Of a stretch of 39,634 bases of DNA, positions 3,361-39,073 are shown one piece after another. The stretch's first letter is position 1. Every line of letters begins with the position of its first letter. The stretch is from positions 1 to 39,634 of the IMG/VR virus record IMGVR_UViG_3300036770_007146, one strand, 5' to 3'. The DNA is from a virus. Below the pieces are notes generated by a model. It ran no database searches and was not told where the DNA came from. It worked only from the letters and a program-made list of their open reading frames with translations. The position numbers and the translations under genes were made by a program.

Positions 3361-3436
3361 TGTTTCTCCAAAGTACTTTTTAAAAATTTTTTTGTGGCCT
3401 GTGGTGTTTGAATTTTTAAGGACGCTTCGTCGCTTC

Positions 3437-4783
3437 GGTGCTCTTCAACGGTCTGGCTCGTTCCTTTTTCATGGATGTCTCAGTAATTACGACTCGTTCG
3501 CGGTCTATTGGTTCTCTCCGATTGTGCGACTCACTTCAATCCCATGATGCTGTCGTCTATTTCGGTTCATTCACTGTGAATGGTGCTCTTACCTCTGTTG
3601 ATTCACTGTCTGTTCTTGGTGCTCTCGCCTCTGATGGTTCATTCAGGTGCATTGGGTACTCGGAGTCAATGATTCGTTCACTCAGGATGGTTCTCTCGTG
3701 GACCGCGACTCACTTCCGGTTCTTGGTTCTCTTTGGGCGAACGGTTCGTTCTCACTCATTGGAACTCTTTTATCTCATGACTCACTTGAATCTCACGGTT
3801 CTCTCATCACTGTTGGTTCACTTTGGTCTATTGACACTATCTCCATGTGCGGTTCATTCTAGTTACACGGAACTCTTTAACCATGTGATTCACTCCTGCA
3901 GCAGTCGGTGCTCTCTGATTTTCCGGTTCATTCCTGATTTTTGGTGCACTTAGTTCACGCGATTCACTTTCCTAGGCCGGTGCTCTCACTTCTGTTGGTT
4001 CAATCGGGAATTACGGTTGTCTCCTTGCACGCGCTTCGTTCTATGTGGTCTGGCTTTCTCGCTCGTTCTGACTCACTTGGAGATGGTGGTTCTCTTCCTT
4101 CGGACGGTTCATTTTCGTCTAGCGGTTATCTCGTGTCACACGATTCACTTAGCATTTACGGTGCTCTCATTTGACACGGTTCGATTTCCTCGTCTGGTTC
4201 TCTTACAGTGCGCGTCTCACTCTTAGCGGTCGGTTCTCTTTCTGACTCCTGGTTCGTTCCGGCATGCCGGTTCTCTTGACAACTATGACTCACTCAAGTC
4301 ACGCGGTGCTCTGTTCTCTGCGCGATTCATTCATTGACGATGGTACTCTCCGCATTCTTGATTCGCTCTTTTCACACGGTTCTCTACGGTCACACGGCTC
4401 ATTCGCCCCTCTAGGGTCTCTTAGTCAGCGTGATTCACTCCCGGTTCCAGGTTCTCTCATGGACATTGGTTCACTTCTCTGCCCTTGGTTCTCTCAAGAC
4501 CAGTGGTTCATTCCCGATGTACGGCACTCTAAAAGTCAATGATTCACTCAGGGATGTTGGTGCGCTTATGGCACGCGGTTCATTCAAGGGATGTGGTGCT
4601 CTTGTGCATCTTGATTCATTCAGCAAGGACGGTACGCTTGTTGGAAGTGATTCATTCTAGGGGTGCGGAACTCTTCTTCATTTTGATTCATTCGCGGTTT
4701 ATGGTACTCATAGGTCGCAGGATTCATTTGGATAACGCGGCACTCTCAAGGGCCATGATTCACTCTGCGGTGCTGGCGCTCTT
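3437..4783. repeat. Non-coding 18/36-bp periodic two-box array, about 75 units
   Basis: The whole 3361-4759 gap is filled by units of 18 bp: a conserved box of 9-10 bp, then about 8-9 variable bases. Two box types alternate without exception: A, consensus YGGTNCTCTY, and B, consensus YGRTTCAYTY, so the true repeat is 36 bp (A-N8-B-N8) copied about 37 times. Of 74 intervals about 67 are exactly 18 bp; most exceptions are 19 bp (one is 20; units 12-13 together span 35 bp). The variable bases look random and contain in-frame stops at about the chance rate, and no reading frame crosses the array on either strand. Conserved boxes are pyrimidine-rich on plus and purine-rich on minus. It lies between two minus-strand genes, so it may be transcribed as a purine-rich RNA. 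Role unknown. Confidence 0.9.
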
Positions 4784-4978
4784 TTCTTCCTCGGTTGAAG
4801 AAATATAAGCCTGACCATCCATGTCCATCAATGCCCAATAAGCATCTTTGTAACATGGAAAGTCAGACTCAAAGATGATTTCGTCCCCATCCTCCAGGGT
4901 GCCGATGACCCAACCGCCACGGTATGGCGTGATACGGATGGTGTACACCAGTCCCTGAAGGACAGGAACGTTATTCAT
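4760..4978 (-). CDS. Small hypothetical protein ending inside the array
   Basis: 72 aa from the ATG that overlaps the upstream gene's stop (TGATG). It has beta-rich segments (GLVYTIRITPYRGGWVIGTL, DEIIFESDFPCYKDAYWALMDM), like a small phage domain that predicts exposure of hydrophobic strands. The C-terminal residues (TEEEKSASTAE) are encoded by the last two array units, and the TGA stop is formed by the conserved TCA of a B box. It is probably co-expressed with the IS110-like gene. No family is recognised. Confidence 0.65.
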   Translation of the reverse strand: MNNVPVLQGLVYTIRITPYRGGWVIGTLEDGDEIIFESDFPCYKDAYWALMDMDGQAYISSTEEEKSASTAE

Positions 4979-5841
4979 CACGCCGCCTTGTATCCGGGCG
5001 GAGCGATGTAGTGAGCGTGACCGCCATGCTCAATGATGTAGGGCTTCGGCGGTGCGGTGTTGAAGTGGGCCTCGTAGGCAACGTGGTGCCAGTGGGCCAG
5101 GAACAACTTCGTAGCGTAGCGTGAAGCCTGCGAGAGAATTCGACCCTGGGGCAAACGGCCAGCCTCGTAAGCCTCACGAGTTGCCTTGTCCTTGATGTTC
5201 TTTTCACGCAAGGTCTGTGCGGCCAGTTCGGCATAGTCGCCAGCCTCGTTCTTGGCCATACGACGCTCCTTATCCTGCACGTACAACTTGCCGTAGAAGG
5301 CATCATCCTTGCCAGACACCTTGATGAATGACTGACCAATCTTCCAGCAGATTGTCTTCAGTTCGGCGTTCCACGGACGCTTCTCGCCCTTGTTCCACTT
5401 GCTGGTCGGGTCAAGACCGGCATAGCGCCAGATGTGACCGACCGTGGGGGCCTTTGTAATGTCAATATGGGCAAGGAGGCCAGCGGCAAGCACTGGGCCA
5501 ATGCCCATCTGCGAGAGCGACCAGCGCCCAACCTCGTGCGCTTCGGCGTAAGCCTGCAGAGCAGGAATAATGGACTTCTCAACGGTGTGAATCTGACCGT
5601 AGTAGTACTCAATCAGGACGCTGTCATCCTCGTCGTAGAGGATTGAGGAAACCTGGTTGCCAAGAGCAATACGGTGCTCCTGGATGCGGTAGTAATAATC
5701 AACAAGCGCACCGGCCTGGCGACGGTCGAGTGTTCCGGACTTACGGACCAGGTCCTTGTCCAGACGCTTGATGATTTCGGGTCCGGCGAACTCAACTGTA
5801 GTCGGGTCCTCCAGGTGGAACTTCTGCTTTTTGGTAGCCAT
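4978..5841 (-). CDS. IS110/IS116-like helix-hairpin-helix domain protein
   Basis: 287 aa. Residues 1-105 are helical and unlike a transposase catalytic domain. About residues 108-175 (MGIGPVLAAGLLAHIDI, HIWRYAGLDP, then a Lys/Arg-rich loop and a helix) match the C-terminal Transposase_20 helix-hairpin-helix region of IS110-family recombinases. The N-terminal DEDD RuvC-like domain of true IS110 transposases is absent, so this is likely a phage DNA-binding protein rather than a mobile element. GGGAGAG precedes the ATG, and a promoter lies at 5893-5921. Its stop overlaps the start of the next gene. Confidence 0.7.
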   Translation of the reverse strand: MATKKQKFHLEDPTTVEFAGPEIIKRLDKDLVRKSGTLDRRQAGALVDYYYRIQEHRIALGNQVSSILYDEDDSVLIEYYYGQIHTVEKSIIPALQAYAEAHEVGRWSLSQMGIGPVLAAGLLAHIDITKAPTVGHIWRYAGLDPTSKWNKGEKRPWNAELKTICWKIGQSFIKVSGKDDAFYGKLYVQDKERRMAKNEAGDYAELAAQTLREKNIKDKATREAYEAGRLPQGRILSQASRYATKLFLAHWHHVAYEAHFNTAPPKPYIIEHGGHAHYIAPPGYKAA

Positions 5842-19161: not shown

Positions 19162-21861
19162 ATGGCGCGTGACTGGGTTTCTCCTGAAGTTCAAAATTTT
19201 TTAGGCAAGTTAGATGGAGTGCGTGCCAATGGCAGTAATTGGTCAGCGCGTTGCCCATGCCGACCCGATGACCACAACCCATCTCTTTCGGTTGGCCAAG
19301 GCGACGACGGACGCGTTCTCGTTACCTGTCACCGAGGCGTTCCATGCGACGTCGACCAAATTTGCCAGTCGGTCGGGATAAGCGTGTCTGACTTAATGCC
19401 CAAAAAGCAAGATAAGAAACGAAAACTAACGCTTGTTGAGACTTACGATTTTCGTGACGCGCTTGGCAATCTTGTTTTTCAGAAGCAACGATTCGTTGAT
19501 GAAGACGGCAAGAAGACATTCATACAGCGTCGGGTGGATGCTGAAACTGGTGAATGGGTAAGAAATCTTGACGGTGTTGAAAAGATTCTTTACAACTTGC
19601 CAAAGGTGTGTGCTGCTCGTGACGCTGGCGAAAGTATTTGGGTCGTAGAGGGCGAAAAAGATGTTGACACCCTTTCTGGCATGGGAATCACTGCCACGAC
19701 CATGCCTGGGGGTGCTGGCAAGTGGCTTGATATTCACACGGAAACTCTCGCTGGAGCAAATATTGTCCTTGTTGCGGACAACGACGACTCTGGCAAAAAG
19801 CACGCTGCTGAAGTCGCCGAAAAACTGCAGAATGCCGGGTGCTCGGTTCAGTTAAAAATCTCCAAAGTCAAAAACAAAGCAGATGTTACTGACCATCTTG
19901 AGGCAGGCCTTTCACTTGACCAGTTAGAAGATTTTGACCCAACAACCGAAATTGCTACGGAAGACATCTTCGGTCCGCTTTTGAAGAAGTTGGCTGAGGT
20001 ATTTGCCAAAGAAAATGTTTCTGACCAAACAAAACTTTCTCGTGCTGAACTCATCCTTGCTGAAATAAATCCCGGTAATCAAGGGGTAAAAAACGAGGGT
20101 CGTTTGGTTGAATGGTCGGCTTTCGTAAATGAAGCAGAAGACGATTCTTATGACTGGGTTATCCCCAATTTACTTGAAAGGGGTGAGCGCGTCATTGTGG
20201 TGGCCTCGGAGGGCGTCGGAAAGCGTGCTACAATAACTAGCATGATACCAACACCCTCTGGATGGACTCGCTTGGGGGACATTAAGGTTGGGGATAAAGT
20301 CTTTGACCGTTTTGGTAATCCTGCCAACGTCACTTATGTAAGCCCAGTAGAGAAAAATCCCGATGCTTACCGTGTGAGGTTTTCCGATGGGAATTTTATT
20401 GACGCCGATGCCGAGCATCAGTGGTATACCGAAACAATTAAAGAACGAGAGAAGCGAGAAACAGGTTGCGTCCGGACAACCAAAGAGATTCTTGAAACAT
20501 TAGTTTCAAATCGTCAAACCAAAGCACTTAACCACGCGATACCTACGACCAAGCCACTGAACCTACCCACAGTTGAACTTCCAATCCCCCCATACACGCT
20601 AGGCGCTTGGCTCGGGGATGGTTCAACTTTAGATGGGTGCATTTGCTCAGAGGACCCAGAAGTTCTTGAAAACATACGGAAAGATGGGTACGAAGTTCGA
20701 CTGAGACCTTCTACAACGAATATCTATGGGATTTTAGGACTTAAAGCCCAACTAAGAAAATCATTGCTCCTTGGCGATAAAAACATTCCGCAAATTTATT
20801 CTCGGGCTTCTTTTGAGCAGCGTTTAGCCTTAGTTCAGGGATTAATGGACACGGACGGCTATATTCAAAAAAATGGCACATGCGAGTTTTCCGTGACGCG
20901 TAAAGTCCTTGCAGAAAATTTCCTAGACATTCTGCTTACACTCGGCATAAAGGCGACCATGCGAGAGTCGGCGGCGAAATTGTATGGAAAAGTTACTGGC
21001 ACGCGCTACCGCATTGCTTTTAAAACGGACTTGCCAGTTTTTAATATTTCTCGAAAAGCATCTCGCTTGCCCTCTAAACTCCCAACTAATCGTTCTCTCT
21101 ACAGGTACATCACTAGCGTTGAAAAAATTGAGCCAACCCCGATGCTCTGTATCTCAGTTGATGGACCCGACAATACATATCTAATCGGAGAGGCCTATAT
21201 TCCAACCCATAACACCATGCTCGCTAGGCAGGTTGCTTTGTGCTCTGCCGCTGGCCTTCATCCCTTCAAAATGACGAATATGAAGCCCGTGCGGACACTA
21301 ATGGTTGACCTTGAGAATCCGGAAAGGATTATCCGGCGTACATCAAAGAGCATTTATGGAGCAACATTGCATTATGGGCATAAAGAAACTCCTGACGCTC
21401 ACCTTTTGATTAAGCCTGACGGAATTGACCTACTGAAAGCCTCAGACCGATTGATGCTTGAGGATAAATTGGAGCAGGTTCGCCCGGAAATCGTTTTCTT
21501 GGGCCCCGTCTACAAGTCCTTCATTGACCCGGGTGGGCGCACAAGCGAAGCCATCGCAATTGAAATTGCTAAGTACTTTGACACAATTCGTGAATACTTC
21601 AAGTGCGCCATGTGGTTTGAGCACCACGCCCCACTGGGTTCTGCACTGGCCTCACGGGACCTCAGGCCATTTGGTTCGGCAGTTTGGTCTAGATGGCCAG
21701 AATTTGGTCTTAGCCTTCAGCCAGACCCTACGGCACCAGAGGGTTATGTTTATGAGGTTAAGCATTTCCGAGGTGCACGAGACCGTCGTGAATGGCCCAC
21801 TAGAATGAAGAGGGGTAAAATATTCCCATTCGAAGTTCTTGATTATCTTGAGGCGGACTAA
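19162..21861 (+). CDS. Primase-helicase (Toprim + RecA-like ATPase) interrupted by an intein
   Basis: 899 aa, 569 after splicing. N-terminal zinc-binding region with CPC (31, 33), C56-H57 and C62 resembles phage primase zinc ribbons. Toprim domain: EGEKDVD at 163 and DNDDSG at 206. The RecA/RepA-like ATPase follows; its Walker A SEGVGK (349-354) is split by the intein, and the T of GKT is residue 685, the first residue after it. Walker B-type strands TLMVDLEN and IVFLGPVYK and an EHHAPLG motif follow. It would prime and unwind phage DNA. The ribosome site AAGGGGG lies 7 nt upstream. Confidence 0.85.
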   Translation: MARDWVSPEVQNFLGKLDGVRANGSNWSARCPCRPDDHNPSLSVGQGDDGRVLVTCHRGVPCDVDQICQSVGISVSDLMPKKQDKKRKLTLVETYDFRDALGNLVFQKQRFVDEDGKKTFIQRRVDAETGEWVRNLDGVEKILYNLPKVCAARDAGESIWVVEGEKDVDTLSGMGITATTMPGGAGKWLDIHTETLAGANIVLVADNDDSGKKHAAEVAEKLQNAGCSVQLKISKVKNKADVTDHLEAGLSLDQLEDFDPTTEIATEDIFGPLLKKLAEVFAKENVSDQTKLSRAELILAEINPGNQGVKNEGRLVEWSAFVNEAEDDSYDWVIPNLLERGERVIVVASEGVGKRATITSMIPTPSGWTRLGDIKVGDKVFDRFGNPANVTYVSPVEKNPDAYRVRFSDGNFIDADAEHQWYTETIKEREKRETGCVRTTKEILETLVSNRQTKALNHAIPTTKPLNLPTVELPIPPYTLGAWLGDGSTLDGCICSEDPEVLENIRKDGYEVRLRPSTTNIYGILGLKAQLRKSLLLGDKNIPQIYSRASFEQRLALVQGLMDTDGYIQKNGTCEFSVTRKVLAENFLDILLTLGIKATMRESAAKLYGKVTGTRYRIAFKTDLPVFNISRKASRLPSKLPTNRSLYRYITSVEKIEPTPMLCISVDGPDNTYLIGEAYIPTHNTMLARQVALCSAAGLHPFKMTNMKPVRTLMVDLENPERIIRRTSKSIYGATLHYGHKETPDAHLLIKPDGIDLLKASDRLMLEDKLEQVRPEIVFLGPVYKSFIDPGGRTSEAIAIEIAKYFDTIREYFKCAMWFEHHAPLGSALASRDLRPFGSAVWSRWPEFGLSLQPDPTAPEGYVYEVKHFRGARDRREWPTRMKRGKIFPFEVLDYLEAD
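20224..21213 (+). mobile_element. Class 3-like intein with LAGLIDADG homing endonuclease
   Basis: Residues 355-684 of the primase-helicase, inserted in the Walker A loop between K354 and T685. Splicing blocks: TPSGWTRLGDIKVGDKVFD near the start, AEHQWYT (W421), LCISVDGPDNTYLI (Cys663) and YIPTHN at the end, then Thr685. The W-C-T trio with a non-Cys/Ser first residue (Arg355) is the mark of class 3 inteins. Two LAGLIDADG motifs (LGAWLGDG about 480, LVQGLMDTDG about 560) form a homing endonuclease, so it may still be able to move. Confidence 0.85.

Positions 21862-38097: not shown

Positions 38098-39073
<976 letters not shown>

What the first reader, a model, noticed from the sequence alone, without database searches (positions are those of the whole stretch)
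3437..4783. A 1.35-kb non-coding array with strict 18/36-bp periodicity and two alternating boxes
About 75 units of 18 bp fill the whole gap. Box A (YGGTNCTCTY) and box B (YGRTTCAYTY) alternate in every one of the 75 units, giving a 36-bp dimer unit, while the 8-9 bases between boxes look random. About 67 of 74 intervals are exactly 18 bp. Stops appear at about chance rate in the variable bases and several single-base shifts break the frame, so selection seems to act on DNA or RNA and not on protein. It is not a CRISPR array (no long repeats, 9-bp spacers), not a simple tandem repeat (half the bases vary), and not an iteron set I know. Possible roles: a platform for a repeat or filament protein (18 bp is close to one turn of a RecA-type filament), a purine-rich RNA sponge from the minus strand, or a packaging or segregation site.
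Basis: partly seen in the sequence, partly recalled or inferred. Interest (0 to 1): 0.93.

Follow-up and report, generated by a model that had tools for sequence, protein, structure and literature searches.

The report
Phage TIGR guide-RNA array beside TasA
The repeated 1.4-kb stretch is a list of 38 two-part guide RNAs next to the gene for the protein that uses them (a TIGR-TasA system, a CRISPR-like RNA-guided DNA-binding system first described in 2025), and comparing it with sister phages shows that the list is rewritten one whole two-part guide at a time.

Summary
In detail: 18/36-bp periodicity, two alternating boxes, variable spacers (z 9.7 and 15 against shuffles). It is a dual-repeat TIGR array read from the minus strand, just 3' of a 287-aa solo-Nop Tas protein (4978-5841). 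That protein matches the curated TIGR-Tas family (191.7 bits, cut-off 100) and solved TasR/TasH structures by sequence and fold. The array holds 38 units: 10-nt edge repeat RARYGARYCR, 8-nt spacer A, 10-nt loop repeat RAGAGHACCR, 8-nt spacer B; it spans 3423-4797. All nine closest relatives carry such an array, and a DNA-only search for the repeat grammar leads back to Tas genes. No nuclease domain is present, so it is a TasA. Family membership is settled. New here: the two spacers either side of the loop repeat are kept or replaced together (92% against 56% across the edge repeat), so arrays turn over by whole guide units. The natural targets were not found. New member of a known kind.

The parts
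3423..4797 (-). Dual-repeat TIGR array: 38 tigRNA units (spacer A, loop repeat, spacer B) separated by edge repeats, transcribed on the minus strand from 4797 to 3423
   Evidence: Periodicity and logos; same architecture beside the homologous gene in all nine closest relatives
4978..5841 (-). tasA: 287-aa Nop-domain Tas protein with no nuclease domain
   Evidence: NCBIfam NF052498 E 1.6e-56, above cut-off; PDB TasR 9e-18 and TasH 3.5e-10 by sequence; AF2 model against TasH Z 18.8, TasR Z 17.4, IS621 Z 13.0
4760..4978 (-). 72-aa ORF of unknown function between tasA and the array; its start overlaps the tasA stop (ATGA) and its 3' end overlaps the first tigRNA unit
   Evidence: Translation; 89% and 55% identical in the two closest lineages only; no NCBIfam hit
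4792..4797 (-). 5'-truncated edge repeat (CAACCG) that opens the array
   Evidence: Read from sequence; arrays opening this way are described in PMC12045711
3423..3427 (-). 3'-truncated edge repeat (AAGCG) that closes the array after spacer B AAGCGACG
   Evidence: Read from sequence
4584..4620 (-). tigRNA unit AGATGCAC-[AAGAGCACCA]-CATCCCTT, kept in three phage lineages
3571..3607 (-). tigRNA unit ACAGAGGT-[AAGAGCACCA]-TTCACAGT, kept in three phage lineages

Best explanation
The array is the guide-RNA store of a phage-borne TIGR-TasA system. tasA, a small ORF and the array lie in that order on the minus strand and are probably co-transcribed. The precursor would be cut in the middle of each edge repeat into about 36-nt tigRNAs (half edge, spacer A, loop, spacer B, half edge). 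A TasA dimer holds one tigRNA by its pseudo-symmetric repeats, and the two 8-nt spacers together bind opposite strands of one DNA target of about 16-18 bp. With no nuclease domain, the complex most likely acts by binding and bending DNA, for example blocking transcription or replication of a rival element or a host gene. Shown here: family membership, architecture, strand, extent, edge/loop assignment, and co-inheritance of the two spacers of a unit. Inferred from the published biochemistry of TasA/TasR/TasH: processing and DNA binding. Inferred only: the role in conflict with other elements or hosts (about 40% likely).
For: Curated model NF052498 TIGR_Tas at 191.7 bits against cut-off 100, matched by 20 of 20 relatives. 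Sequence and fold matches to TasR and TasH, then IS621, Nop5 and Prp31. A 36-nt dual-repeat array with 10+8 grammar in all nine closest relatives. The reverse test: searching viral contigs for the repeat grammar alone gave 31 stretches, 22 of them encoding a Tas relative on the DNA held. 51 of 76 further relatives have such an array directly 3' of tas, and about 11 more show the period 5' of it. The published SpTIGR array of Salicola phage CGphi29 has the same grammar. Spacers flanking the AGAG repeat are co-replaced (Fisher 4e-6 in the sister pair) and those flanking the other repeat are not (P = 1). Targeting rules are from PMC12045711.
Against: No transcript or RNP data exist for this phage. 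No intrinsic terminator was detected after the array, though published arrays typically have one. No natural target was found for any spacer pair. The repeats show more variation than a single fixed consensus.
Confidence: 0.93

Rival explanations
1. Protein-binding DNA platform (iterons, centromere-like or packaging site): a protein reads the two boxes on DNA and the spacers are filler.
For: Conserved boxes with free spacers; the TIGR paper reports occasional operons of TasA with ParB-like genes.
Against: Spacer sequences are inherited and replaced as pairs across one repeat type, and some pairs are kept across lineages, which filler would not do. The array accompanies a Tas gene both ways round. 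No ParB-like domain was detected in the neighbouring ORFs tested.
Confidence: 0.03
2. Decayed or cryptic gene for a GSLxxxDSFxxx repeat protein on the plus strand.
Against: 7-19 stops in every plus frame and about 30 in every minus frame; also many stops in the sister array. 19-bp steps break the frame. Point changes in spacers show no codon phase: 18 of 48 congruent against 1/3 expected.
Confidence: 0.01
3. The adjacent gene is an IS110-type transposase and the repeats are bridge-RNA or insertion debris.
For: Weak Pfam Transposase_20 hit; PHROG 4285 is named transposase.
Against: No N-terminal DEDD/RuvC domain; IS110 model at 23.3 bits against cut-off 140 while the TIGR_Tas model passes; a long ordered array is not a bridge RNA.
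Confidence: 0.02

Closest known systems
TIGR-TasA dual-repeat systems (Faure et al. 2025, PMC12045711)
   Same: Solo Nop protein next to a dual-repeat array; 36-nt unit; truncated edge repeats at both ends; box C/D-like ends shared by the two repeats
   Different: 38 units (most often 5-15 in the paper); 8-nt spacers; degenerate repeats; a small ORF between tasA and array; no terminator detected
SpTIGR-TasH of Salicola phage CGphi29
   Same: Same 10+8 grammar, AAGCGAGCCA / AAGACAACCA; 16 nt of spacer per guide
   Different: TasH carries an N-terminal HNH nuclease; the window protein does not
TaTIGR-TasR (PDB 9mty)
   Same: Nop core aligns over 193 residues, rmsd 2.9, Z 17.4
   Different: TasR has an N-terminal RuvC nuclease (the alignment starts at TasR residue 112); 9-nt spacers
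IS110/IS621 bridge-RNA recombinases
   Same: Nop-like RNA-binding core, Z 13.0
   Different: DEDD/RuvC recombinase, single bridge RNA, no array
CRISPR arrays
   Same: Repeats with variable spacers serving as guides
   Different: Two alternating 10-nt repeats, 8-nt paired spacers, no Cas genes seen beside the array

Membership tests
TIGR-Tas | Nop-domain Tas protein | tested here: met
   NF052498 191.7 bits, cut-off 100; fold match to TasH/TasR and weaker to Nop5/Prp31
TIGR-Tas | Adjacent array of two alternating 8-12-nt repeats | tested here: met
   10-nt repeats alternating through the array
TIGR-Tas | Spacers of about 9 nt, 36-nt unit | tested here: met
   8-nt spacers in ten arrays, as in SpTIGR (16 nt per guide)
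[quoted passage not shown]
   CAACCG at 4797-4792 and AAGCG at 3427-3423
TIGR-Tas | Edge and loop repeats share box D / box C ends | tested here: met
   Both begin RA and end CR in the window; GA...CA or GA...CG in most relatives
TIGR-Tas | Predicted rho-independent terminator after the array (typical, not defining) | tested here: not met
   None found by scan; fold z -0.12
TIGR-Tas | Processing to 36-nt tigRNAs bound by Tas | not testable with these tools
   Needs RNA-seq
TIGR-Tas | Tandem-spacer RNA-guided DNA binding | not testable with these tools
   Pairwise co-inheritance of spacers agrees with it but is not a binding test
TasR / TasH subtypes | N-terminal RuvC or HNH nuclease | tested here: not met
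   Residues 1-19 have low confidence and no structure, first helix from residue 20, alignment to TasR starts at its residue 112
IS110 transposase | DEDD/RuvC domain plus IS110 family model at its cut-off | tested here: not met
   NF033542 23.3 bits, cut-off 140; no N-terminal domain in the model
CRISPR array | One repeat of about 25-36 nt with spacers of similar size | tested here: not met

The most novel reading that the evidence does not exclude
TIGR arrays are rewritten by exchange or duplication of whole guide units (spacer A, loop, spacer B) with junctions in the edge repeats, without dedicated adaptation genes; nuclease-less TasA phages thereby carry fast-changing sets of binding guides against unknown targets. 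Some guide units persist across lineages and may hit a conserved target.
Probability: 0.5. Interest if true: 0.65.

Novelty: new member of a known kind. Interest (0 to 1): 0.45.

Why it matters
The TIGR-Tas paper lists the origin, maintenance and expansion of its arrays, and their natural targets, as open. This phage and its sister (TasA 99% identical, array diverged) give a natural experiment: spacers on the two sides of one repeat are kept or lost together. That supports paired targeting in nature, shows which repeat is the loop, and shows that the unit of turnover is the whole guide. About 510 relatives in viral contigs and some cultured phages make this testable.

Tried and rejected
Codon-tracking targets: early point differences between sister spacers looked third-position-like; with 122 unit pairs and 193 changes the signal vanished (18/48 against 1/3), leaving only extra change at spacer position 8. 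Self targets: spacer pairs in the phage's own sequence do not exceed shuffled pairs. Targets in nine relatives and in up to about 1.2 Mb of unmasked viral DNA: no excess. An apparent excess at rc(A)+2+B was one unit against a repeated motif, and I take the 13 exact hits at gap 0 to be the 13 loci fetched with that very pattern. Whole-collection scans with conserved units gave unrelated hits or conserved phage genes. The join order B+rc(A) was my derivation from the paper's 8-nt 3' overhang; because the paper words the cut site in two ways, I also tested rc(A)+B. DNA search of the locus against sequenced phages: no match. Fold search was not used to exclude families. Not run: the complete host chromosome of a TasA-bearing isolate such as Halomonas sp. 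NO4.

Full report
The stretch has autocorrelation 0.396 at 18 bp and 0.460 at 36 bp against 0.27 in dinucleotide shuffles, z 9.7 and 15.0. Read on the minus strand it alternates two 10-nt repeats, RAGAGHACCR and RARYGARYCR, with 8-nt spacers that carry about 0.1 bit per column; 66 of 74 spacings are exactly 18. It has many stops in all six frames, as does the sister array. The true extent is 3423-4797. It opens with a 5'-truncated and closes with a 3'-truncated copy of the RARYGARYCR repeat, which leaves 38 complete spacer-AGAG-spacer units.

The neighbour explains it. On the same strand, 5' of the array, 4978-5841 encodes a 287-aa protein with a weak IS110-type Pfam hit. Sequence search of solved structures finds TasR (9e-18) and TasH (3.5e-10), and a profile of 20 relatives finds TasR, TasH, IS621 and ISCro4. 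The NCBIfam model TIGR_Tas_endo matches at 191.7 bits against a cut-off of 100, and all 20 relatives match it at E <= 0.01. An AlphaFold2 model (pLDDT 83, pTM 0.81) aligns with TasH (Z 18.8), TasR (Z 17.4), IS621 (Z 13.0) and, more weakly, Nop5 (7.7) and Prp31 (7.2). No N-terminal nuclease is present, so despite the model's name it is a TasA. The published description of TIGR arrays (two alternating 8-12-nt repeats, about 9-nt spacers, 36-nt processed guides, truncated edge repeats at the ends) fits in every tested point except the terminator (PMC12045711).

The association was tested both ways. All nine viral contigs found by TasA similarity carry a 36-bp dual-repeat array. A scan of viral contigs for the repeat grammar alone found 31 stretches, 22 of which encode a Tas relative on the DNA held. 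A profile scan counted 512 viral relatives. Of 76 further loci parsed, 51 have such an array directly 3' of tas, about 11 more show the period 5' of it, and several of the rest are cut short. The published Salicola phage array has the same grammar, and its last repeat before the terminator is of the [CT]GA type.

Which repeat is edge and which is loop follows from inheritance. The sister phage L002 has a 99% identical TasA and a diverged array. Spacers replaced between the two phages come in pairs around RAGAGHACCR (9 double, 3 single of 37; Fisher 4e-6) and not around RARYGARYCR (3 double, 15 single; P = 1); leaving out a stretch misaligned by one unit gives 5e-4 and 0.3. The AGAG repeat inside a replaced pair also differs more (3.0 against 0.88 changes). 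Over 15 chosen array pairs with shared spacers, the neighbour of an identical spacer is kept across the AGAG repeat in 285 of 311 cases and across the other repeat in 171 of 306; 14 of the 15 pairs go this way. Counting all pairs, which are not independent, gives 761/830 against 403/815. Units shared between distinct lineages are joined by the AGAG repeat. So AGAG is the loop repeat, RARYGARYCR the edge repeat, and the guide unit is what is kept, lost or moved. Near-identical units occur within 24 of 91 arrays parsed, and an 82-bp stretch matches the sister array at 74% two units away, so duplication of unit blocks is one way arrays grow.

How it works: transcription through tasA, the 72-aa ORF and the array, cutting in the edge repeats, loading of TasA dimers, and DNA recognition by two spacers on opposite strands are inferred from the published TasA/TasR/TasH work, not shown here. 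Without a nuclease, binding and bending of DNA is the likely output. The role (blocking rival elements, host genes, or aiding integration) is open; rivalry with other elements is my first guess at about 40%.

Targets were sought and not found. Spacer pairs in either join order and several gaps do not exceed shuffled pairs in the phage itself, its relatives or further viral DNA. Two pattern scans of the whole viral collection with conserved window units, and one with a mycobacteriophage unit, returned unrelated or merely conserved phage genes. A first hint that spacer changes follow codon positions failed with more data.

Verdict: a real and well-formed feature, already explained in kind by the 2025 TIGR-Tas work. 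The family evidence is strong, the biochemical steps are inherited from the family, and the new part is the comparative evidence for unit-wise turnover.

Noticed in passing
L168:3616-3940 (Mycobacterium phage CactusRose KX683876.1): Gene 72, annotated transposase, matches TIGR_Tas (230.9 bits). Just upstream lie five tandem stem-loops with 30-39-nt loops, four of them holding CGAA-rich ...CCCA motifs, like the published stem-loop TIGR arrays. 74 mycobacteriophage records hit the window TasA, so the system can be tested in M. smegmatis.
   Followed up: partly
L169:4600-5000 (Microcystis phage Mvi-JY20 PP438412.1): Dual-repeat TIGR array (ATGCGAGCC / ACGAAACCC) ending in a terminator-like hairpin, 3' of a Tas gene annotated as hypothetical (193.3 bits).
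   Followed up: partly
L009 and L010: The detected arrays lie about 8-9.5 kb from the tas gene instead of next to it, and the Tas proteins of L008-L010 carry an insertion of roughly 60-100 aa inside the Nop region.
   Followed up: no
L155-L167: 13 TasA relatives in bacterial or archaeal assemblies (Acidobacteria, Halomonas, Propionivibrio, Gemmatimonadetes, a Woesearchaeota MAG and others); eight have arrays by the same test.
   Followed up: partly
window 19162-21861: Toprim primase / AAA helicase-like ORF with an in-frame LAGLIDADG domain, so probably an intein; terminase PHROG hits on it are likely intein cross-matches.
   Followed up: no
window 4760-4978: 72-aa ORF between tasA and array, conserved (89%, 55%) only in the nearest phages; it could be a TasA partner or a leader peptide.
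   Followed up: partly
window about 38136-38937: A second, weak 36-bp periodicity inside the tail-fibre ORF, probably collagen-like coding repeats and not a TIGR array.
   Followed up: no
arrays of the window, L011 and L044-L154: The last base of the 8-nt spacers (position 8) changes most often between sister units, 42 of 193 changes, perhaps because pairing there matters less.
   Followed up: partly
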